Part shown: positions 4,192 through 58,300 of the stretch, one piece after another
How positions within the stretch are numbered: position 1 is the stretch's first letter
Layout of the letters: the number at the start of each line of letters is the position of its first letter
From: an uncultured Lachnospiraceae bacterium
GTDB taxonomy: Bacteria; Bacillota; Clostridia; Lachnospirales; Lachnospiraceae
NCBI GenBank assembly: GCA_902778165.1
Contig: CACYWQ010000001.1
Location: 333,116-397,115 of the forward strand
Length of the DNA: 64,000 nt
Reading direction: 5' to 3'
The notes under the pieces: generated by a model
Told to the model about the DNA's origin: nothing
The model's database searches: none
Seen by the model: only the letters and a program-made list of their open reading frames with translations
Position numbers and translations under genes: made by a program

Positions 4192-5154
4192 ATGATTAAC
4201 AACCAGTGGTACGCAGTACTGTCATCGAATGAAGTTAAGAAGGGTAAAGTGGTTGGTGCAAGGAGATTCGGTGATGATCTCATTTTTTTCAGGGATGAGA
4301 AAGGCGAGATTGGATGTATCACGAGCCTGTGTGCGCACAGGGGGGCGTCGTTAACCAAGGGTTGTGTGACGGATGGGCATGTCAGGTGTCCGTTTCACGG
4401 CATCGAGTATGATGTGACCGGCAAATGTGTTTATGTGCCGTCCGAGGGCAGGGCGTCGACTGCCGATTACAGCCGTTTCCATATGAAGCATTATGTGACT
4501 AAGGAGATAGGCGGGATAGTGTTCGCCTGGTATGGTGATGACGAGCCCGTGGGCGAGCCGGATGTATTCGATGTAGTTAAAGACCCATCTTTTACATATG
4601 ACCATATCAATGATACTTGGAATGTGCATTATTCCAGGGTCATAGAGAATCAGCTGGATGTGTCGCATCTGGCGTTTGTGCATCGCACGACGATTGGCAG
4701 AGGCGATAAGCGTCTGTGTAACGGGCCCAAGGTGGTGTGGCTTGATGATAATACTCTGCAGACCAGTGCAAATAATGAGGTCGATTCCGGTCAGACGCCG
4801 AAACCGGCGGATCAGTGCGAGATCAAGTCGACCAATCTGACGTTTAAATTTCCCAATATGTGGCTTAATCATGTGACGGATAAGATTATGATTTTGGCGT
4901 ATTTTGTTCCGGTGGATGATGAGCATTCGATAATAGCGCTTAGGTTCTATAACAGGATAACGGGGCTTAGGGCGATAGATAAGGCGATTGCGTGGCTTGG
5001 AAGCAGGGCGAATAAGATTGTTGAGAGGCAGGATAAGCGGATTGTGCAGACGCAGCTCCCGAAACGTTCACAACTTCGCATGAGCGAGAGCCTTGTCGCG
5101 GCGGATATACCGATTATTGAGTATCGGTCTAGGAGGGATAAGCTGCAGGGGTAG
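4192..5154 (+). CDS. Rieske-type ring-hydroxylating oxygenase, alpha-subunit-like
   Basis: A 320-residue enzyme with an N-terminal Rieske [2Fe-2S] domain: C47-x-H49 ('CAHRG') and C66-x2-H69 ('CPFHG'). The C-terminal half carries the mononuclear iron motif N153-x2-D156-x2-H159-x4-H164 ('NQLDVSHLAFVH'). Family members use O2 and electrons from a partner reductase to hydroxylate or demethylate aromatic or terpenoid substrates; no reductase gene is nearby. The length fits the shorter single-component-type members. The start ATG 4192 follows GAGGAGG at 4180-4186. Base composition is visibly richer in G+C than the flanking genes, which suggests separate acquisition. An O2-dependent enzyme is odd next to anaerobe genes. 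A decayed copy of its first codons lies at 7891-7941. Confidence 0.88.
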   Translation: MINNQWYAVLSSNEVKKGKVVGARRFGDDLIFFRDEKGEIGCITSLCAHRGASLTKGCVTDGHVRCPFHGIEYDVTGKCVYVPSEGRASTADYSRFHMKHYVTKEIGGIVFAWYGDDEPVGEPDVFDVVKDPSFTYDHINDTWNVHYSRVIENQLDVSHLAFVHRTTIGRGDKRLCNGPKVVWLDDNTLQTSANNEVDSGQTPKPADQCEIKSTNLTFKFPNMWLNHVTDKIMILAYFVPVDDEHSIIALRFYNRITGLRAIDKAIAWLGSRANKIVERQDKRIVQTQLPKRSQLRMSESLVAADIPIIEYRSRRDKLQG

Positions 5155-5261: not shown

Positions 5262-5394
5262 CTTAATTCGGGCTTGATTATGTTTTTTAATATCCCGAGG
5301 CATTTGTCAAGGCTGCCGCGAAGCGGCACCGCGTAGTGGATGCGGCCTTGACGAATTCCTCGGGATAATCTATATTTCGCAAAGCCGAATTAAG
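5262..5394. repeat. Nested palindrome with three-way junction, copy 1
   Basis: Outer arms CTTAATTCGGGCTT (5262-5275) and AAAGCCGAATTAAG (5381-5394) enclose a second stem of about 22 bp (5292-5313 with 5345-5366). Its tip holds two abutting small hairpins: TGCCGC-GAA-GCGGCA (5314-5328) and CCGC-GTA-GTGG (5329-5339). A second element with the same layout but different stem sequence lies at 17322-17464. The element sits alone between two genes of the same strand. It could be a non-coding RNA, a small palindromic mobile element or a protein-binding cruciform; I do not recognise a described family. Confidence 0.75.
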
Positions 5395-5520: not shown

Positions 5521-6624
5521 ATGTTAAAGAGATTTACTGTGGAGAATTTTAAATCGTTTGAAGATAGAATTGTTTTTGACTTGGAATCACGGAACAATTA
5601 TGAGTTTAATTCGGATGTAGTGAAGAATGGTATTGTTAATAAGGGCATTATATATGGATTTAACGGATCCGGTAAGAGCAATCTTGGACGTGCTATCTTT
5701 GATATTATCATAATGCTTACGGATAAGAATAAAGCTATTGATGAATATTATCCTTATCGAAACCTTAATACCGATCTTTCTATATCGGTGAGTTTTGAAT
5801 ATGTATTTGAATTTGACGGTTCGGAGCTTGTGTATAAATATAGCAAGGATGATGTTGACAGTTTGGTTGATGAGGTGCTTGAGATAGATGGAAAAGAATA
5901 TATTAAGTATGATTTCTTTAAACAAGATGGCTTTGTACGGTTGAAGGGAGCGGAGAATCTTAGCATCAATGATCCGGACAGTGAGATATCAAGAGTAAAA
6001 TATGTTAGAAGTAACAGTATTCTTGAGAACACTCATGAAAATGGAGTATTTAAGAGTTTTATTCAGTTTGTAGATAATATGCTTATGTTCTATTCGTTAG
6101 ATAATAACAGATACCGAGGATTTAGAAGCGGGGTTAGTAAGATAGCTGCAGAAATAATTAAACAGGATAAAACAGAAGATTTTGAAGGATTTCTTCGTGA
6201 GAATAATATAGATATGAGCATAGAATCTGCTGAGGTGAATGGTGATTTGATTCTCTATGCGAATTATAAGAATTCAAAAGTTGATTTCTTTTCGGTTGCG
6301 TCTAAAGGAACTATAGCGCTAACATTGTTTTATTATTGGTACCTACAGATGAATAAAGCTTCTTTCGTATTTATGGATGAGTTTGATGCCTTTTATCATT
6401 TTGAATTGTCAGAAGCGATTGTTAATAGATTAAAAGAACTAGCTGATACACAAATAATTTTTACAACTCATAATACAGATTTACTTAGTAACGATTTGAT
6501 GCGTCCTGATTGCTATTTCTGGTTAGATGGTGGAAAAATAAAAGCATTGAGTGAACTGACAGAGAAAGAACTACGTAAGGCACATAACCTACAGAAGATT
6601 TTTAAGGCTGGGGGATTTAGATGA
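5521..6624 (+). CDS. AAA/ABC-type ATPase of a two-gene defence module
   Basis: A 367-residue ATPase of the RecF/OLD/AAA_21 type. It opens with the typical 'FTVENFKSF' strand, has a Walker A at residues 46-53 (GFNGSGKS), a short signature 'SKGT' at 261-264, a Walker B with D286-E287 ('FMDEFD') and the switch histidine H317 ('TTHNTD'). There is no TOPRIM domain in this chain; that function is on the next gene, which overlaps by 4 bases (ATGA). This split layout is known from AbiL (RloA/RloB-like), PARIS (AriA/AriB) and related anti-phage systems, in which the ATPase senses infection and controls the nuclease partner. GGAGG at 5507-5511 fixes the ATG start. The exact system type is an inference. 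Confidence 0.8.
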   Translation: MLKRFTVENFKSFEDRIVFDLESRNNYEFNSDVVKNGIVNKGIIYGFNGSGKSNLGRAIFDIIIMLTDKNKAIDEYYPYRNLNTDLSISVSFEYVFEFDGSELVYKYSKDDVDSLVDEVLEIDGKEYIKYDFFKQDGFVRLKGAENLSINDPDSEISRVKYVRSNSILENTHENGVFKSFIQFVDNMLMFYSLDNNRYRGFRSGVSKIAAEIIKQDKTEDFEGFLRENNIDMSIESAEVNGDLILYANYKNSKVDFFSVASKGTIALTLFYYWYLQMNKASFVFMDEFDAFYHFELSEAIVNRLKELADTQIIFTTHNTDLLSNDLMRPDCYFWLDGGKIKALSELTEKELRKAHNLQKIFKAGGFR

Positions 6625-7439
6625 ATGGGTACGTTGCAATAATATACGAGGGGGATAAAACAGAAGTAAACTATTGGAATAGTCTATGGAAGACATTCTT
6701 TCATAATGACAAGGCTTGCTTTATAAGTTTCCCAGCGGGTGAAAATATATACATGCTTTGGAAGCAATTAAAGGACGATGATTTTAACTCTGACATTATA
6801 GAGGTAGTTAGGGAATATAAGCCTGAAGCAGCAGGTATACTTGGAGATTTAACAAGAGAAGATTTTCAGGAAGTATATTTGTTCTTTGATTATGATCCGC
6901 ACAACAATAATCTCAGTAAAGATGACTGTCAATCAGAGAAGGATGTACTGCGCGTAATGTTGCGCGATTTTGATAACGAGACGGAGAATGGCAAACTATA
7001 TATAAGTTATCCTATGAGTGAGGCTTTGCGTGATTATAATCCGTGGAAATGTAAGGCGTTCTCGAAATGTTTCATAAATGTCGAAGAAATAGCGAGTTAT
7101 AAGGAAATCTCTGGATTTGGTAATCCAAATGCAGATTATAGAAAATACGACATAGAAGTATGGGAAATGCTGTTGGTGATTTTCTTAAAGAGATGTGCTT
7201 GCTTATTGGAAACAGACAAAGATACTCTCAATCCATTGGGTTGGTACAAATCACAGGTATCTGCAGAACGGATATATGATAAAGAATCTGATTTGTATAC
7301 GAACCAAGGAAAGGTCTTTCCATTAAGTGCCTTCCCGGAATTCATTCTTGAATATTTCAAGAAAGATAAATTCGAGCCTATAGTGGAAGGTTTCTATCAC
7401 AAGGTGTTATCTGATGATTGTGATATGACAAGAGGCTGA
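6621..7439 (+). CDS. TOPRIM-like (RloB/OLD-type) nuclease partner
   Basis: A 272-residue protein whose first strand ends in E10-G-x2-T-E15 ('IYEGDKTE') and which has an acidic pair D90-x-D92 ('FFDYDP') after a hydrophobic strand. This E...DxD arrangement is that of TOPRIM nucleases of the RloB, AriB and OLD groups, which bind Mg2+ and cut DNA or tRNA. The C-terminal 150 residues are helical and not assigned. It is translationally coupled to the ATPase (4-base overlap) and should act with it as effector. A decayed relative of its 3' end lies at 2420-2577, so the locus once held two such genes. It is longer than typical RloB proteins (about 200-220 residues). Confidence 0.7.
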   Translation: MNGYVAIIYEGDKTEVNYWNSLWKTFFHNDKACFISFPAGENIYMLWKQLKDDDFNSDIIEVVREYKPEAAGILGDLTREDFQEVYLFFDYDPHNNNLSKDDCQSEKDVLRVMLRDFDNETENGKLYISYPMSEALRDYNPWKCKAFSKCFINVEEIASYKEISGFGNPNADYRKYDIEVWEMLLVIFLKRCACLLETDKDTLNPLGWYKSQVSAERIYDKESDLYTNQGKVFPLSAFPEFILEYFKKDKFEPIVEGFYHKVLSDDCDMTRG

Positions 7440-17276: not shown

Positions 17277-17296
17277 GGAACACCTGCCGGTGTTCC
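17277..17296 (+). terminator. Hairpin at the end of the first glycan operon
   Basis: A perfect 8-bp stem GGAACACC (17277-17284) with GGTGTTCC (17289-17296) and a TGCC loop lies 62 bases after the DUF2304 stop. The T-run is weak (ATTGATT), so termination strength is uncertain. A second small hairpin, TGCGC/GCGCA, follows at 17311-17324. Confidence 0.5.
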
Positions 17297-17321
17297 ATTG
17301 ATTATAAAGATGCGCTATGGC

Positions 17322-17464
17322 GCATAATAATCCATTTCTGCTTGATTACAGTATATCTGCAGGAGAACGGGAGTCAAGGATGCGAAGCACCACTACGTGG
17401 CATGTCCTTGACTCCCGTTCTCTTGCAGATAAGATATCACCTAAGCAGGAATGGATGATTGTGC
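17322..17464. repeat. Nested palindrome with three-way junction, copy 2
   Basis: Outer arms of 18 bp or more (17326-17343 with 17443-17460, two mismatches, weaker pairing to 17322/17464) enclose a 27-bp stem (17354-17380 with 17405-17431, one mismatch). The tip holds two abutting hairpins: TGC-GAA-GCA (17381-17389) and CCAC-TAC-GTGG (17390-17400), then CATG. The layout is the same as in 5262-5394, including the GAA loop, the GATTA after the left outer arm and the GTCAAGG stem end, while most stem bases differ and still pair. Confidence 0.8.
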
Positions 17465-17472
17465 AAGCTAAG

Positions 17473-17503
17473 ATAAGAGGCTTGCGTAGCAAGGCTTCCT
17501 TAT
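17473..17503. repeat. Small hairpin next to the palindrome
   Basis: An imperfect stem ATAAG...CTTAT closes GCTTGC-GTA-GCAAGG-like pairing with a GTA loop, the same loop as in one hairpin of copy 1. It may be a degenerate fragment of the same repeat family or an unrelated terminator-like hairpin. Confidence 0.35.
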
Positions 17504-17529
17504 TGACATAAGAGTACCAATAGGTCTTG

Positions 17530-17571
17530 AACATAACAGTACACTTATTGAAAAAAGTGTACTGTTATGTT
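17530..17571. promoter_or_regulatory. Perfect 17-bp inverted repeat, probable antitoxin operator
   Basis: Arms 17530-17546 and 17555-17571 (AACATAACAGTACACTT and its exact complement) are separated by 8 bases. The right arm fills the spacer of the promoter described next and the left arm lies just upstream of the -35. Type II antitoxins with an HTH commonly bind such sites to repress their own operon; this role is inferred. Confidence 0.75.
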
Positions 17572-17576
17572 AAAAT
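17548..17576 (+). promoter_or_regulatory. Promoter of the toxin-antitoxin operon
   Basis: TTGAAA (17548-17553), a 17-base spacer and TAAAAT (17571-17576), each five of six consensus bases, lie 33 bases before the toxin start and are interleaved with the inverted repeat. Confidence 0.7.
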
Positions 17577-17609
17577 ATAATTGACATTAAGAGTAGGGAG
17601 GTGTTGCTG

Positions 17610-17993
17610 ATGGCGGCTATATTGGCTGACCCGGATGGATATAGCCCAAGCGATATAATAAAGCGCTTACATACATGTATTGATTCCGGGACATATGGTT
17701 TAGATTATATAATTGATTGTAGAGATAAGAACGAAGAGTTTTTTCAAGAATATATTATTTCCGAGAATGATAGGATTGAAATCCTTAAGAAACTATCAAT
17801 TGAGCACTATGTTAGATGGGAGTACAGTAATAACCCAAGATATCCTAATGATATAGTTCATATTTTTTTATACTCAACGCATCTCCGGCAAAGAGGTGTA
17901 GAAGATGCACCGGAGAGGTTAGTAAGAATATATATCAAGGTCACTTGGGCTAAGCCGGTCGGTGTTCTGATCGTTATTTCTTTTCATGATTGA
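17610..17993 (+). CDS. MqsR-like toxin candidate
   Basis: A 127-residue protein (the GTG at 17601 overlaps the ribosome site AGGGAGG 17595-17601, so ATG 17610 is preferred). The overall order, an N-terminal helix 'DIIKRLHTCIDSGTYGLDYII', a charged middle, and a C-terminal strand pair 'RIYIKVTW...GVLIVISFHD', resembles MqsR, the RelE-fold mRNA interferase whose end reads YLKITV...LIVSFK. It is directly followed by an antitoxin with an MqsA-like N-terminus, which supports the call. Toxic activity as a ribonuclease is inferred; I cannot confirm catalytic residues. The 36-base gap and shared promoter indicate one transcript. Confidence 0.65.
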   Translation: MAAILADPDGYSPSDIIKRLHTCIDSGTYGLDYIIDCRDKNEEFFQEYIISENDRIEILKKLSIEHYVRWEYSNNPRYPNDIVHIFLYSTHLRQRGVEDAPERLVRIYIKVTWAKPVGVLIVISFHD

Positions 17994-18029
17994 TTGAATT
18001 TATTTCAGATTTTTGTATGGGAGAGATGT

Positions 18030-19022
18030 ATGGATAAATATATGGATAAGGTTCTTTGTGCATGTTGCAGAAGTGTGCAATCATACTCCGTATTAACAGA
18101 AAAGAAAAAAAGAATATGGAATGGGATTGAATGCACGTATAACAGACGCTACGCAGTGTGTGATAAATGTGGCAACAGAGTGTCTGTTCCGGGAATGGAT
18201 GATTTAAATGAAACGGAATTTGATAATAAATGTAGAGAAGAGCATGACTATATCCTTATAGATGAGATTAATGACATATTGATTAGATATGATGTTGAGA
18301 AAAGGCCTCTGTCGTTAGCACTTGGAATGGGTGAGCATACAATAGAGAATTATTTGAAAGGTCAACTTCCAAACAAGCACTATTCTGATATGCTTAAGCG
18401 AGTCTTGACAAATTACAGATATATGCAGGAACTCTATAGTTCCAACAAAGACAGAATAAACAATCATGCAGCCAAGAAGATCGAATCTAAATTGGAATTC
18501 TATAACAGAATTAATTCTCATTCTTCCATGATTGAGTCTGTGGCATTATATGTACTAAACTCTAAGTATGAAATAACAAATCTGTCCCTTCAGAAGTTAT
18601 TGTACTATGTTGAAGCTTTCTGCCAGGTTCTGTTGCAGGAGAAAATATATAGTAATAGGTGTGAGGCTTGGACATATGGTCCGGTCTATCCGGATATTTA
18701 CGAGAAATACAAAACGTTTGGTAAAGAGCAGATTCTTGTAGATCCTGTTGATTTGTCAAAGGATATAGACGAAAAGTATCGTAAAGTTATAGATTATGTA
18801 TTAAATTTGTTTGCAATATATAATGGAGTTACTCTTAAGGATTTCAGTCATGCCGAGGATCCATGGAAGAATGCTCATGCCGGGTATGGTGAGAAAGAAC
18901 ACTGCCAAGAGATAATTACACACGAGGCAATAACGGATTACTTCACAAAAATCAATAGCAAATATGATTTAAGCAAAGAAGCCGGGGTGAAAAAATATAT
19001 TTCGTCACTTGGAGTTATATAG
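18030..19022 (+). CDS. Antitoxin: zinc finger, HTH and Panacea (SocA-like) domain
   Basis: A 330-residue protein in three parts. Residues 10-47 carry two CxxC pairs (C10/C13 and C44/C47), an MqsA-like zinc site. Residues about 80-125 form an HTH-like region ('LSLALGMGEHTIENYLKG'). Residues about 168-310 match the Panacea/SocA (DUF4065) domain, with 'LSLQKLLYYVEAFC' and 'CEAWTYGPVYPDIYEKY'. Panacea domains are known neutralising modules of many toxin-antitoxin pairs, and MqsA-type HTH proteins repress their operon. GGGAG at 18019-18023 supports ATG 18030 over a TTG at 17994. The pairing of both modules in one chain beside an MqsR-like toxin is noteworthy. Confidence 0.82.
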   Translation: MDKYMDKVLCACCRSVQSYSVLTEKKKRIWNGIECTYNRRYAVCDKCGNRVSVPGMDDLNETEFDNKCREEHDYILIDEINDILIRYDVEKRPLSLALGMGEHTIENYLKGQLPNKHYSDMLKRVLTNYRYMQELYSSNKDRINNHAAKKIESKLEFYNRINSHSSMIESVALYVLNSKYEITNLSLQKLLYYVEAFCQVLLQEKIYSNRCEAWTYGPVYPDIYEKYKTFGKEQILVDPVDLSKDIDEKYRKVIDYVLNLFAIYNGVTLKDFSHAEDPWKNAHAGYGEKEHCQEIITHEAITDYFTKINSKYDLSKEAGVKKYISSLGVI

Positions 19023-55308: not shown

Positions 55309-58300
55309 ATGAATTCGTTAGGACGTGTTAATAACAGGGAAACGAACAGTTTTAAGTTTGTTGATATAAGGTATCGAATAACGGCTCTTATTCTCGGTAT
55401 TATGATCGTTATTTCATCCGTATTCGGAGCTGCTATTGTTGCATATGCGGCAGGCAATCAGGCAGCTGTTAAGAAATCCAATTATGTCATATCCAAGTTA
55501 AGTGATGCGCAATCGGCTCTTAGCGGAATAGTAAGAGAACGTCAGATACCTGCGCTTGTATATCTTAAGGATGCTTATACTATAAGACATGATGCGGATG
55601 CATACAGCGATTCTGTTGCAACGGTTGCGTCAGGTCAGTTGTTGTATATAATCGGAGTTGATGCCGATTCCGGCCGTAATATATGGTATAAGGTTCGATA
55701 TACCAGCGATTCAGGCAATCTCGAAGGCTATGTTGAACGAGAGTTCCTTGCTTGTTCCGATGCCAGATTGCTTGATTGGGAAGATAAATATGTCACCACA
55801 GTTAAAAGAGAAGAGACTGCATCTGTGACGGATTGTGCGGATATCGAAGCCTTCCCGGGAAGTTATCGTGATGCACTGTATGATCTTAAGAAGGCACATC
55901 CGGATTGGATATTTGTTAAGCAGAATACAGGTCTTGATTTCTCGTCTTCCGTAGCAAGTGAAGGCAGAGGTGAATACAGCCTTATATGGACGAAGTCATG
56001 TTTAAGTTCATGGATAGAGTCCAAATATGACGGTTCATGGTCATATGCGACGGACGGAATCATAGCATACTATATGGATCCGAGAAACTTCTTGGATGAG
56101 ACCCATATATTTATGTTTGAGCAACAGACATATAATCAGACATATCATACCGAGAGTTCGGTTCAGAAGATATTAAACGGATCATTTATGTCAGGTGGAA
56201 TACCCGGCACAAATGTATCCTATGCATCGACATTCATGTCATTGGCCGCAAGGTACAATATCAGCCCTATTCTTCAGGCAGCCAGAGTTCTTCAGGAACA
56301 GGGCGTTCAGGGCACATCGCCGCTTATATCCGGTACATATCCGGGATATGAAGGATATTACAATTATTATAATGTAGGAGCAGTTGCGTCCAATCCGATT
56401 CGCGGCGGACTTGATTATGCTGTAGATAAAGGATGGAACAGCAGACTTGCAGCACTTGAAGGTGGAGTTAAGTTTATCAATAACAACTATATCAGCAAAG
56501 GTCAGGATACGCTTTATCTCCAGAAATTCGATGTTGATGCAAGTTATTACGGGGTACTTACTCATCAGTATATGCAGAATATAGCTGCTCCGTATAATGA
56601 GTCTGCATCGGCTTATAAGGGTTATAAGGCAGCGGGACTGTTATCATCAACTCCTTTCGTATTCAGAATTCCCGTATACAATAATATGCCATCAGGCAGA
56701 TCCAATAAGCCTGATACACCGGATGTGCTTACTGTCAATATGGATAAAGTGGAGAACCTGCCGGTAGAGCAGAGCGCTGTTCTCACTCCTTATATTAACG
56801 GTGGCTTATGTGAGGCTTATGAATATGTATATTCAAGTTCGGATAAATCTGTTGCAACCGTAGATGACAACGGTGTCATAACAGGTAAGAAGCCGGGAAG
56901 TGCGACCATCACATGTAAGGCAGGAAGCGCCGGAAGTACTACATGTCTGGTATCGGTAATTAAGGCAGATATTGCAATGGGCGATGTAGACAGACCGGAT
57001 TTAAGCGTTACATATGACCCTGAGGCAACACTTGCAAGTATAGATCTTCCCGATGAATTTGCATGGACAGATGACAGTATTGTTCCGACAGTTGAGAATA
57101 ATGGTTATACAGCTACATACAGTCCGGACAACAGTAGATTCAACAGTCTTATTATGACGCTTGATGTTACGGTAGATAAAGCCAAGATATCTGTAGATGA
57201 CATAGAGATCCCTTCTGATATTTCGGTAGCAGCAGGAAGCGAGTTATCCGCAGCAGCATTGCCTAATAACTTTAAGTGGGATGATTCGACCATGACTGTA
57301 TCTGCCAAGGCGGGAACATACAAATACAAAGCTGTATATTGTTTGGACGAGGCTAATTATGAGCCCACTGAAGATATAGAGATTCCTGTTGAAGTAGTTT
57401 GCTCAGAACACAGATTCTCGGAGTGGAGTGAACCAAATGGCGGATATATCACAAGAGAATGTGAGATATGTGGTGAAACAGAGAGACTTAAGGTTGCAGA
57501 ACAGGTAACAGAAGAAGACTGTACCACAAACGGCCATAATATGGTGGACGGAGTGTGTACAAGGTGCGGTTATGAGGAACCTACACTTCAGGAACACAGC
57601 CATGAGTATACTTTATCTTCTGATACAGCCACATGCACAGAGGCCGGAGTTAAGACTTATACCTGCTCATGCGGTGACTCATATACAGAGGAGTCGGCGG
57701 CACTCGGACACCATATGGTCGGTAATAAGTGCGACAGGTGTGACTACGTATATACACCGACGGCTGCAGTGACACCGTTGCCAACAAGCGTACCTACGAG
57801 GATTCCCTCTCCGACGGTAGTACCGACACCTACAAGTGTGCCTACACCTACAGCGGTTGCGAACCCAACGAGTGTGCCAACGCCTACGGCCATTCCGACA
57901 CCTACGAGTATACCTACGCCCACGGTTATTCCGACACCTACAAGCATACCTACGCCCACGGTGATCGCTAGGCCGACTATTGTTCCTATAGTAACGGTAA
58001 CACCGACACCCACAGTCATCCCGTCACCCACAGCGGCATCCGGTGGTAAAGTAGTGGCGCAGGTAACAAAGATAGTATTACCAACACCCACGGCAGTTCC
58101 GACAGCCACGGTAGCGCCGGCTCCAACGACAAGTGCCAAACCACAGATAACCAAGGTGGTTGTGCCTACAGAGCAACCGAAGGTTACGCAGAGTGCAAAG
58201 CAGGAAACAGAGGATAAACAAGAGGCTGCCGTTACACCACAGACGCAGGCAGCAGAGGCTGTTGCTGAGACTAAACCTGCAGATAAGCCGGCTATAAAGC

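What the first reader, a model, noticed from the sequence alone, without database searches (positions are those of the whole stretch)
5262..5394. Structure-conserved, sequence-diverged nested palindrome (pairs with 17322-17464)
Two elements 12 kb apart have the same fold: an outer stem, an internal loop that starts GATTA on the left, a long second stem ending in GTCAAGG, then two hairpins that abut with no gap (a GAA-loop hairpin and a CCRC/GTGG hairpin), 4-5 unpaired bases (ATGCG or CATG), and the closing strand CCTTGAC. The stem sequences differ widely yet pair in both copies (the outer arms are unrelated in sequence; the GAA hairpin is 6 bp in one and 3 bp in the other; one G-T pair in copy 1 is A-T in copy 2). 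Independent pairing changes in the same layout point to selection on structure, as RNA or as cruciform DNA. I know no named family with this layout; HEARO, REP/PATE-type palindromes and attC sites come to mind as comparisons.
Basis: partly seen in the sequence, partly recalled or inferred. Interest (0 to 1): 0.72.

Follow-up and report, generated by a model that had tools for sequence, protein, structure and literature searches.

The report
T-tipped nested DNA palindromes
Two odd hairpin-forming stretches belong to a previously unnamed, widely scattered family of bacterial DNA palindromes whose folded form is preserved while its sequence changes, and which in gut-type bacteria carries promoter signals arranged as in promoters that work on single-stranded DNA.

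Summary
Both elements share one layout: outer stem, internal loop, second stem of about 20 bp, a GTCAA.../...TTGAC collar, two abutting hairpins, a few unpaired bases. The own genome has four model-found places. Relatives occur in the same family (taken as Lachnospiraceae), other families of the phylum, proteobacteria and viral contigs. Covariance model R1, built only from same-family elements, scores proteobacterial members at 50-81 bits. Covariation is strong: 34 of 48 pairs change on both sides; 87% of cells pair, 67% shuffled.

Folded DNA fits better than RNA. At one orthologous locus the 25-bp tip is identical but inverted between conserved arms. Some copies have lost the inner hairpin from near its base. 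G·T and A·C mismatches are roughly balanced overall, though not in the same-family alignment.

In the own phylum the collar resembles a -35 box. A -10-like TAnnnT follows at 15-18 nt on the tip-defined right side in 16 of 33 same-family elements and 10 of 15 from other families, mostly in the unpaired loop, as in single-strand promoters (Frpo/ssi). It is absent from 15 proteobacterial or viral elements. The mechanism is uncertain; no mobilising enzyme was found.

The parts
5262..5394 (+). Copy 1, whole nested palindrome
   Evidence: model R1 86 bits, E 4.7e-14 in the own genome, a member by construction
5262..5276 (.). Copy 1 outer stem, left arm (pairs with 5380-5394; CTTAATTCGG then GCTT)
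   Evidence: I14, 15 nt, 87% complementary
5276..5290 (.). Copy 1 left internal loop (GATTATG...)
   Evidence: GATTA-like in alignment A1
5291..5313 (.). Copy 1 second stem, left arm with collar GTCAAGGC
   Evidence: (I2)
5314..5344 (+). Copy 1 tip: hairpin 1 (5314-5328, GAA loop), hairpin 2 (5329-5339), unpaired ATGCG (5340-5344)
   Evidence: sequence; alignment A1
5345..5367 (.). Copy 1 second stem, right arm with collar GCCTTGAC
5348..5376 (+). Copy 1 outward promoter-like pair: TTGACG (5348-5353), 17 nt, TATATT (5371-5376) at the right internal loop
   Evidence: consensus match; function not shown
5380..5394 (.). Copy 1 outer stem, right arm
   Evidence: I14
17322..17464 (+). Copy 2, whole nested palindrome
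   Evidence: model R1 124 bits, E 3.7e-22, a member by construction
17322..17344 (.). Copy 2 outer stem, left arm (right arm 17442-17464)
   Evidence: fold
17345..17353 (.). Copy 2 left internal loop (ATTACAGTA)
17354..17380 (.). Copy 2 second stem, left arm with collar GTCAAGGA
   Evidence: I1, 27 nt, 96%
17381..17404 (+). Copy 2 tip: hairpin 1 (17381-17389), hairpin 2 (17390-17400), unpaired CATG (17401-17404)
17405..17431 (.). Copy 2 second stem, right arm with collar TCCTTGAC
   Evidence: I1
17408..17435 (+). Copy 2 outward promoter-like pair: TTGACT (17408-17413), 16 nt, TAAGAT (17430-17435)
17350..17377 (-). Copy 2 second, opposite promoter-like pair: TTGACT (17377-17372), 16 nt, TATACT (17355-17350)

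Best explanation
The two elements are members of a dispersed family of T-tipped nested palindromes ('T-palindromes') that act in DNA, in the folded state (hairpin of one strand or cruciform). Shown here: the shared fold with covariation; the narrow range of second-stem length; the copy number; the wide spread; tip inversion at an orthologous locus; loss of the inner hairpin in some copies. Inferred: in the own phylum the fold is a single-strand-type promoter or priming site. When the strand is single, the collar (GTCAA/TTGAC) and the roughly 20-bp second stem rebuild a double-stranded -35 box plus spacer, and the -10 hexamer sits already open in the internal loop, so RNA polymerase can start an outward RNA, which may prime second-strand synthesis, as in Frpo/ssi sites. 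The spacer needs length and pairing but not sequence, which explains arms that differ freely yet pair. The outer stem closes the bubble. The role of the two-hairpin tip is unknown (possibly a cap that keeps the collar paired or binds a protein). Near-perfect arms and the flipped tip are explained by arm-to-arm templating of an extruded palindrome.
For: Covariation: 34 of 48 pairs with changes on both sides, score 0.539 against 0.177 shuffled and at most 0.174 slid. Orthologous loci in two species of the genus: element outside the tip 104 of 110 identical, flanks 75-88%, tip 25 of 25 identical but inverted. Inner-hairpin losses in L475 and L483. Second-stem arms mostly 16-22 bp in unrelated genera. 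TAnnnT at spacer 15-18 on the tip-defined right side: 16 of 33 in the test set (shuffles mean 2.4, max 9 in 2000), of which 12 of 24 among those found by core pattern alone; left side 4 of 33. Model-found elements with no collar demanded: 10 of 15 from other families (null 1.1, max 7; left side 2), 8 of 16 same-family (null 1.9, max 7). Single-strand DNA fold of the 16 hits: unpaired probability 0.07 for -35, 0.06 for the spacer, 0.67 for -10, above 0.5 in 14 of 16. Frpo as a stem-loop that reconstitutes -10 and -35 boxes: passages of PMC9849209 and PMC11541004.
Against: No -10-like hexamer in 15 of 15 elements from two alphaproteobacterial MAGs (4 and 4), an unplaced proteobacterial MAG (3) and viral contigs (4); in 8 IS-borne ones only 1 on each side. 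So the promoter reading cannot explain the whole family, although collar and tip are shared. In 17 of 33 same-family elements no TAnnnT was found. One-sidedness is weak in model-found same-family elements: 8 right, 6 left of 16. The collar's constancy is partly search bias: patterns and the core finder demanded it, and model-found elements have both TCAA and TTGA in 23 of 31. Model R1 contains the loop columns, so model-found sets may lean to A1-like loops. The promoter side faces a co-oriented gene in 14 and an opposed gene in 22 of 36. The same boxes would also work as an ordinary double-stranded promoter. In A1 G·T pairs exceed A·C, 76 to 42, which leans a little to RNA. Elements were not shown to lie in leading regions, and no expression data were available.
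Confidence: 0.35

Rival explanations
1. A REP/MITE-like non-autonomous mobile element with no host role: the T-shaped hairpin is the recognition end for a trans-acting enzyme (unknown), copies spread within genomes and ride on IS110 elements; promoter-like boxes are incidental.
For: Multi-copy with genome-specific sequence: outer-stem 16-mer (1 mismatch allowed) 31 forward and 32 reverse matches in one Xanthobacteraceae MAG, most paired at 116-118 bp; 10 places in a Maricaulis MAG and 7 in G343, 8 in G092. Patchy within the genus: 6 of 20 genomes. Present after the transposase stop in most related IS110 copies, absent in L494. Close pairs about 360-700 bp apart at six loci.
Against: No neighbour gene is general: blastp clusters of neighbours are mostly orthologous loci, copies in one genome or translated arrays, with a few pairs of broad families. 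RAYT (PF01797) is absent from 8 of 16 searched genomes including the own one, and no element was found at 10 RAYT loci. No target duplication or clean empty chromosomal site was found. Orthologous retention with better conservation than flanks suggests a kept function.
Confidence: 0.3
2. A structured RNA: a 3'-UTR element or small RNA whose long stem protects or processes transcripts.
For: More gene 3' ends (42) than 5' ends (25) face the elements (mechanical ORFs). It lies directly after, or overlaps, the stop codon of IS110 transposases. G·T 76 against A·C 42 in alignment A1.
Against: Over 72 elements (near-duplicates included) G·T 80 against A·C 64 by tip orientation, p 0.21; by gene sense 36 against 31 in 20 elements. 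The tip inverts at an orthologous locus. The model scores both strands of the same place. No Rfam match at gathering score. Terminator-like hairpins lie on either side of the element, e.g. L425 and L318 (by eye).
Confidence: 0.17
3. A chromosomal cruciform or protein-binding site (nucleoid organisation, gyrase, replication-fork or repair role), as proposed for BIMEs, with no promoter function.
For: Mostly intergenic by mechanical ORFs, palindromic, similar on both strands, conserved at an orthologous locus.
Against: Few copies per genome (four in the own one), patchy in the genus (6 of 20), and a -10 signal that this does not predict.
Confidence: 0.1

Closest known systems
Frpo / ssi single-strand promoters of conjugative plasmids (PMC9849209, PMC11541004, passages read; Masai and Arai 1997 known only from their citations)
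   Same: A single strand folds into a stem that rebuilds -35 and -10 boxes; here -35 and spacer are paired and -10 is mostly unpaired.
   Different: Dispersed chromosomal copies, nested palindrome with a two-hairpin tip, arms free to vary, not aligned with gene starts, not shown to sit in a leading region.
REP / BIME / REPIN palindromes and RAYT transposases (PMC3733652, passages read)
   Same: Dispersed palindromes, genome-specific families, often near gene ends.
   Different: About 130-145 bp instead of 20-40 bp, nested with T-shaped tip, no RAYT link.
IS110/IS1111 elements and their seekRNA / bridge RNA (PMC11187229, passages read)
   Same: Model R1 hits a palindrome beside the transposase 3' end in 9 of the 13 IS110 copies fetched (E up to 1; L493 and L498 weak by the model).
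   Different: A conserved downstream region follows separately and is present in L494, which lacks the palindrome; most family members have no IS110 gene among the neighbours examined.
HEARO RNA (Rfam)
   Different: No HEARO match, in the window at gathering score or in seven member loci at E up to 1.
Integron attC sites
   Same: Single-strand hairpins with conserved layout and variable stem (recalled).
   Different: Not tested: no search for attC core sites or an integron integrase was run.

Membership tests
Frpo/ssi single-strand promoter | fold of one strand rebuilds -35 and -10 with promoter spacing | tested here: inconclusive
   own phylum: 16 of 33 and 10 of 15 on the right side, -10 mostly unpaired; not met in 15 proteobacterial or viral elements and in 7 of 8 IS-borne ones on that side
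Frpo/ssi single-strand promoter | drives adjacent leading-region genes | tested here: not met
   promoter side co-oriented 14, opposed 22 of 36
Frpo/ssi single-strand promoter | transcription or primer synthesis from ssDNA by RNA polymerase | not testable with these tools
   needs in vitro transcription
REP/REPIN (RAYT-mobilised) | 20-40 bp palindromic unit | tested here: not met
   element length about 130-145 bp
REP/REPIN (RAYT-mobilised) | GTAG or CGTC tag at one end | not tested
   no tag search was run; CGTC occurs inside the outer arm of the Xanthobacteraceae set
REP/REPIN (RAYT-mobilised) | associated RAYT gene | tested here: not met
   PF01797 in 8 of 16 searched genomes, absent from the own one; 0 of 10 RAYT loci hold an element
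MITE | partner transposase with matching ends | tested here: inconclusive
   no general neighbour gene; IS110 copies carry the palindrome internally
MITE | target site duplication or empty site | tested here: inconclusive
   no clean chromosomal empty site found for copy 2; within IS110, L494 lacks the element
HEARO / any Rfam family | match to the covariance model | tested here: not met
   0 matches at gathering score in the window; in seven member loci only sub-threshold hits, six of seven to miRNA families
IS110/IS1111 seekRNA (bridge RNA) | encoded beside a DEDD transposase gene | tested here: not met
   true for the IS110 group only; not for the genes flanking the window copies
attC site | R'/R'' core sites and integron integrase | not tested
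   no search was run

The most novel reading that the evidence does not exclude
T-palindromes are a cross-phylum class of genome-resident single-strand promoters or priming sites, whose second stem is a promoter spacer built to be double-stranded when the rest of the DNA is single; they fire when DNA passes through a single-strand state (conjugation, rolling circle, fork stalling) and have been taken up by IS110 elements and prophages. The proteobacterial branch would use a different -10 or a different polymerase.
Probability: 0.22. Interest if true: 0.85.

Novelty: new variant of a known kind. Interest (0 to 1): 0.6.

Why it matters
The best-known bacterial palindromic repeats are short and tied to RAYTs. 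This is a larger, elaborately folded family whose core model crosses phyla while stem sequences turn over, so structure rather than sequence is being kept, and one ortholog pair shows the tip inverting in place. If the promoter geometry is functional, chromosomes would carry Frpo-like single-strand promoters outside plasmids, which can be tested with one oligonucleotide and RNA polymerase. Even if not, it is a searchable family (model R1) for studying how palindromes are kept perfect and how IS elements acquire structured ends.

Tried and rejected
Structured RNA as the main reading: rejected as first choice because G·T and A·C mismatches are roughly balanced over all elements (80/64 by tip orientation, 36/31 by gene sense), the tip inverts and Rfam has no match; kept as a rival because A1 alone gives 76/42.

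The d(GCGAAGC) super-stable DNA mini-hairpin (recalled, no call) as the key signal: dropped, because the GAA loop is in only 5 of 21 parsed tips of 40 places.

RAYT as mobiliser: not supported. General neighbour gene: none. A 276-aa 'gene' between two copies in G361 is a translated tandem array, not a transposase. TIGR arrays as an explanation of the repeat arrays: considered, not pursued; the array spacers are near-repeats, not unique (by eye). Promoter serving neighbour genes: not supported. Empty site for copy 2: only diverged flank hits.

IS256 link: an IS256/Mutator-type transposase (PF00872) in viral L283 has a similar palindrome within 30 bp of its stop, but model R1 gave no hit at E up to 0.1 in L276, the related contig; treated as a look-alike.

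With 120 viral stretches, 5 of these 238 had the full layout. A same-family scan was also too loose (258 of 299 genomes).

Mended after a recount: a notebook entry says 14 of 38 loci have arrays; one search shows 12 of 38 (L413 in addition under other settings). Another gives 13 of 28 for promoter orientation, counted by hand; one search gives 14 of 36. The TTGA constancy printed is imposed by its core finder; redid the test without that demand.

Dropped rows: near-duplicates L418, L419 minus, L426, L427, one L411 copy and L434 were left out, but all of these are in A1; one search keeps L426, L427 and L434 and leaves out the other three. One search skipped seven of 41 same-family and three of ten other regions. 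In one search the other-family set had 8 elements (7 of 8 right, 1 of 8 left); L447, L452, L454, L456-L458 were left out there and are included. One element counted as same-family (L446) is from another family of the same order; one search counts it as other.

Full report
NAMES. I call its family Lachnospiraceae by inference: G092, of the same family, is colinear at 86.6% over 1556 bp with L318, from the genome of a MAG titled Lachnospiraceae bacterium. 'Other families' below means other families of the own phylum as drawn.

CHECK OF THE OBSERVATION. Their folding energies lie 8.66 and 10.95 standard deviations below shuffles, and the paired core is expected 0.02 times in the window. The layout is read directly from the sequence. 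The two-hairpin tip is not the single-sequence minimum-energy fold; it rests on comparison.

MEMBERS. A stricter viral scan gave 24 stretches, about ten with the layout by eye; a third gave 9, several with the layout by eye. In the own family 27 of 397 genomes matched a core pattern with GCGAAGC; 7 of those match only through another conserved sequence (AACAAGGCGAAGCCGATACGCC...) and a few others look like chance. Several genomes are multi-copy: 8 places in G092, 4 in G361, 3 each in G434 and G277; 10 in the Maricaulis MAG, over 20 in the Xanthobacteraceae MAG, 7 in the unplaced proteobacterial MAG.

STRUCTURE IS KEPT, SEQUENCE IS NOT. MAFFT alignment A1 holds 25 same-family elements, several from the same genomes. 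Under the stated structure 87.1% of cells pair (shuffled 66.6%, slid at most 45.5%), 34 of 48 pairs change on both sides, and the covariation score is 0.539 (shuffled 0.177, slid at most 0.174); 0 of 500 shuffles reach any of the five measures. Related rows inflate such counts. Model R1 has hits at E <= 0.001 in 18 of 249 genomes drawn from the phylum (weak ones such as L457 and L458 are doubtful), with four places in the own genome: C1:338373 (copy 1), C1:350442 (copy 2), C12:33479 and C3:16649. In the own genus 6 of 20 genomes have a hit at E <= 1e-5. R1 scores pattern-found proteobacterial elements it was not built from: 81 and 77 bits (Xanthobacteraceae MAG), 74 (Maricaulis), 50 and 50 (unplaced MAG); viral contigs L270 70, L269 69, L280 65, L278 58, L171 44, L273 39, L266 35, L276 none. 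The second stem is mostly 16-22 bp long in the sets compared.

FOLDED DNA RATHER THAN RNA. (i) L434 (G006) and L439 (own genome C12) are orthologous: 80.4% identity over 2.3 kb, colinear. Outside the tip the element is 104 of 110 identical (94.5%) against 75-88% for flanking stretches, and the 25-bp tip is identical but inverted. (ii) In the Xanthobacteraceae MAG the two internal-loop sequences swap sides relative to the tip among copies (by eye), and some copies have lost the second stem and tip from near its base, keeping five bases of one arm (L475, L483, possibly L478). (iii) G·T against A·C mismatches: 80 to 64 by tip orientation over 72 elements (p 0.21, near-duplicates included), 36 to 31 by gene sense over 20 elements. 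Against this, A1 alone gives 76 to 42. (iv) The model scores both strands of a place. A second orthologous pair, L318 and L411, differs at several stem positions on both arms (by eye). Such compensation can come from selection or from arm-to-arm templating; the better conservation of L434/L439 favours a kept function.

PROMOTER GEOMETRY. Scans gave TTGACG-17-TATATT at copy 1 and TTGACT-16-TAAGAT (plus strand) and TTGACT-16-TATACT (minus strand) at copy 2. Orienting elements by the tip and asking for TAnnnT at spacer 15-18: same-family right side 16 of 33 (shuffles mean 2.36, max 9 in 2000), left side 4 of 33; a set of 8 from other families 7 right, 1 left; 8 IS-borne 1 right, 1 left; 15 proteobacterial or viral (4 Xanthobacteraceae MAG, 4 Maricaulis, 3 unplaced, 4 viral) 0 and 0. 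Of the 33, 24 were found by core pattern alone and 12 of these have the hexamer. The finder demands TCAA and TTGA. One search repeats the test on 31 model-found places with the collar taken from the model alignment: both TCAA and TTGA in 10 of 16 same-family and 13 of 15 others; TAnnnT on the right in 8 of 16 (null 1.9, max 7) and 10 of 15 (null 1.1, max 7), on the left in 6 of 16 (null 2.1, max 8) and 2 of 15 (null 1.2, max 5). So the signal holds without the demand, while one-sidedness is weak in the same-family model-found set; and R1 contains the loop columns, so these sets may lean to A1-like loops. A less strict test that ignored orientation agreed for the own family (17 of 34 on each side, shuffles about 5) and for the other families on one side (6 of 7), and was null for the proteobacterial and viral set. 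Folded as single-strand DNA, -35 and spacer are paired (unpaired probability 0.07 and 0.06) and the -10 is mostly open (0.67; above 0.5 in 14 of the 16 hits). This is the arrangement reported for Frpo (PMC9849209 and PMC11541004, passages). The promoter side faces a co-oriented gene in 14 and an opposed gene in 22 of 36 (mechanical ORFs), so the promoter is not placed to drive neighbours; a priming role would not need that. This step is inference.

IS LINK. An IS110-family transposase (PF02371, PF01548) in the own family is followed by a T-palindrome: R1 hits beside its 3' end in 9 of 13 copies fetched (L486, L487, L488, L489, L490, L495, L497; L493 and L498 weak, E 0.01-0.03; L488 and L497 give identical hits and downstream sequence), and in L392 (the same place as L489), L430 and L317. 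Of the four without a hit, L491, L492 and L496 matched only part of the transposase; L494 has the full 3' end and lacks the palindrome, while the conserved downstream region is still there. So the module can be gained or lost. No general mobilising enzyme was found: neighbour clusters are mostly orthologous loci, copies in one genome or translated arrays, with a few pairs of broad families, among them Rieske-type genes upstream of copy 1 and of L341. RAYT genes (PF01797) occur in 8 of 16 searched genomes, not the own one, with no element at 10 RAYT loci.

WINDOW CONTEXT. Copy 1 lies between a Rieske/VanA_C gene (4192-5154) and an AAA_21 gene followed by a gene with a sub-cut-off RloB-like match. 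Copy 2 lies between a DUF2304 gene and a 130-aa ORF (no Pfam match) followed by a SocA/Panacea antitoxin-like gene. Both right-hand promoter sides point at these downstream genes, but that is two cases.

LITERATURE. Nine searches of the held library listed nothing that I recognised as this layout; exact core words gave 0 papers. PMC3733652 and PMC8632094 (passages) and PMC2267715 (abstract and outline) were looked at; supplements were not. Absence from print is only as strong as these searches.

VERDICT. A real family of structure-kept palindromic DNA found in at least two phyla and in viral contigs; most likely acting as folded DNA; in the own phylum probably a single-strand-type promoter or priming site (0.35), with a plain mobile repeat as the nearest rival (0.30).

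Noticed in passing
L412, L413, L417-L419, L422-L427, L461, L468: In several same-family genomes the palindromes flank tandem arrays of short inverted repeats (period 52-74 bp): 12 of 38 element loci, from five genomes, against 0 of 50 control loci; L413 in addition with looser settings. Meaning unknown.
   Followed up: partly
L430, L486-L498, L317: IS110 clade with a T-palindrome after the transposase stop; in L488, L497, L498 and L317 the stop codon lies at the start of the tip.
   Followed up: partly
L283 1280-1460: An IS256/Mutator-type transposase (PF00872) with a look-alike palindrome within 30 bp of its stop; its relative L276 is not scored by model R1.
   Followed up: partly
L477 position 171 (minus strand): A palindrome truncated inside its second hairpin by foreign sequence, possibly an insertion sequence; the contig ends 171 bases on.
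   Followed up: no
L482, L484, L485: The Xanthobacteraceae MAG carries a second tip type resembling the Maricaulis tip, with its own second-stem type.
   Followed up: no
window 5521-7439: AAA_21 (RloA-like) gene plus a gene with a weak RloB-like match beside copy 1, a possible defence pair.
   Followed up: no
window 17601-19022: 130-aa ORF plus SocA/Panacea antitoxin-like gene beside copy 2, a possible toxin-antitoxin pair.
   Followed up: no
window 17527-17574: 23-bp, 91% complementary inverted repeat with a 2-base gap, just upstream of the possible toxin-antitoxin pair.
   Followed up: no
window 57823-57961: 36-bp tandem repeat, 3.9 copies.
   Followed up: no
G338, G380, G289, G234, G162, G070, G267: A different conserved sequence, close to TCAAGGAACAAGGCGAAGCCGATACGCCGTAGGGCAGTCCTTGA, in seven same-family genomes; not identified.
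   Followed up: no
window 17277-17296, 17310-17325, 17481-17493: Small flanking hairpins on both sides of copy 2; similar flanking hairpins beside Maricaulis copies (by eye).
   Followed up: partly
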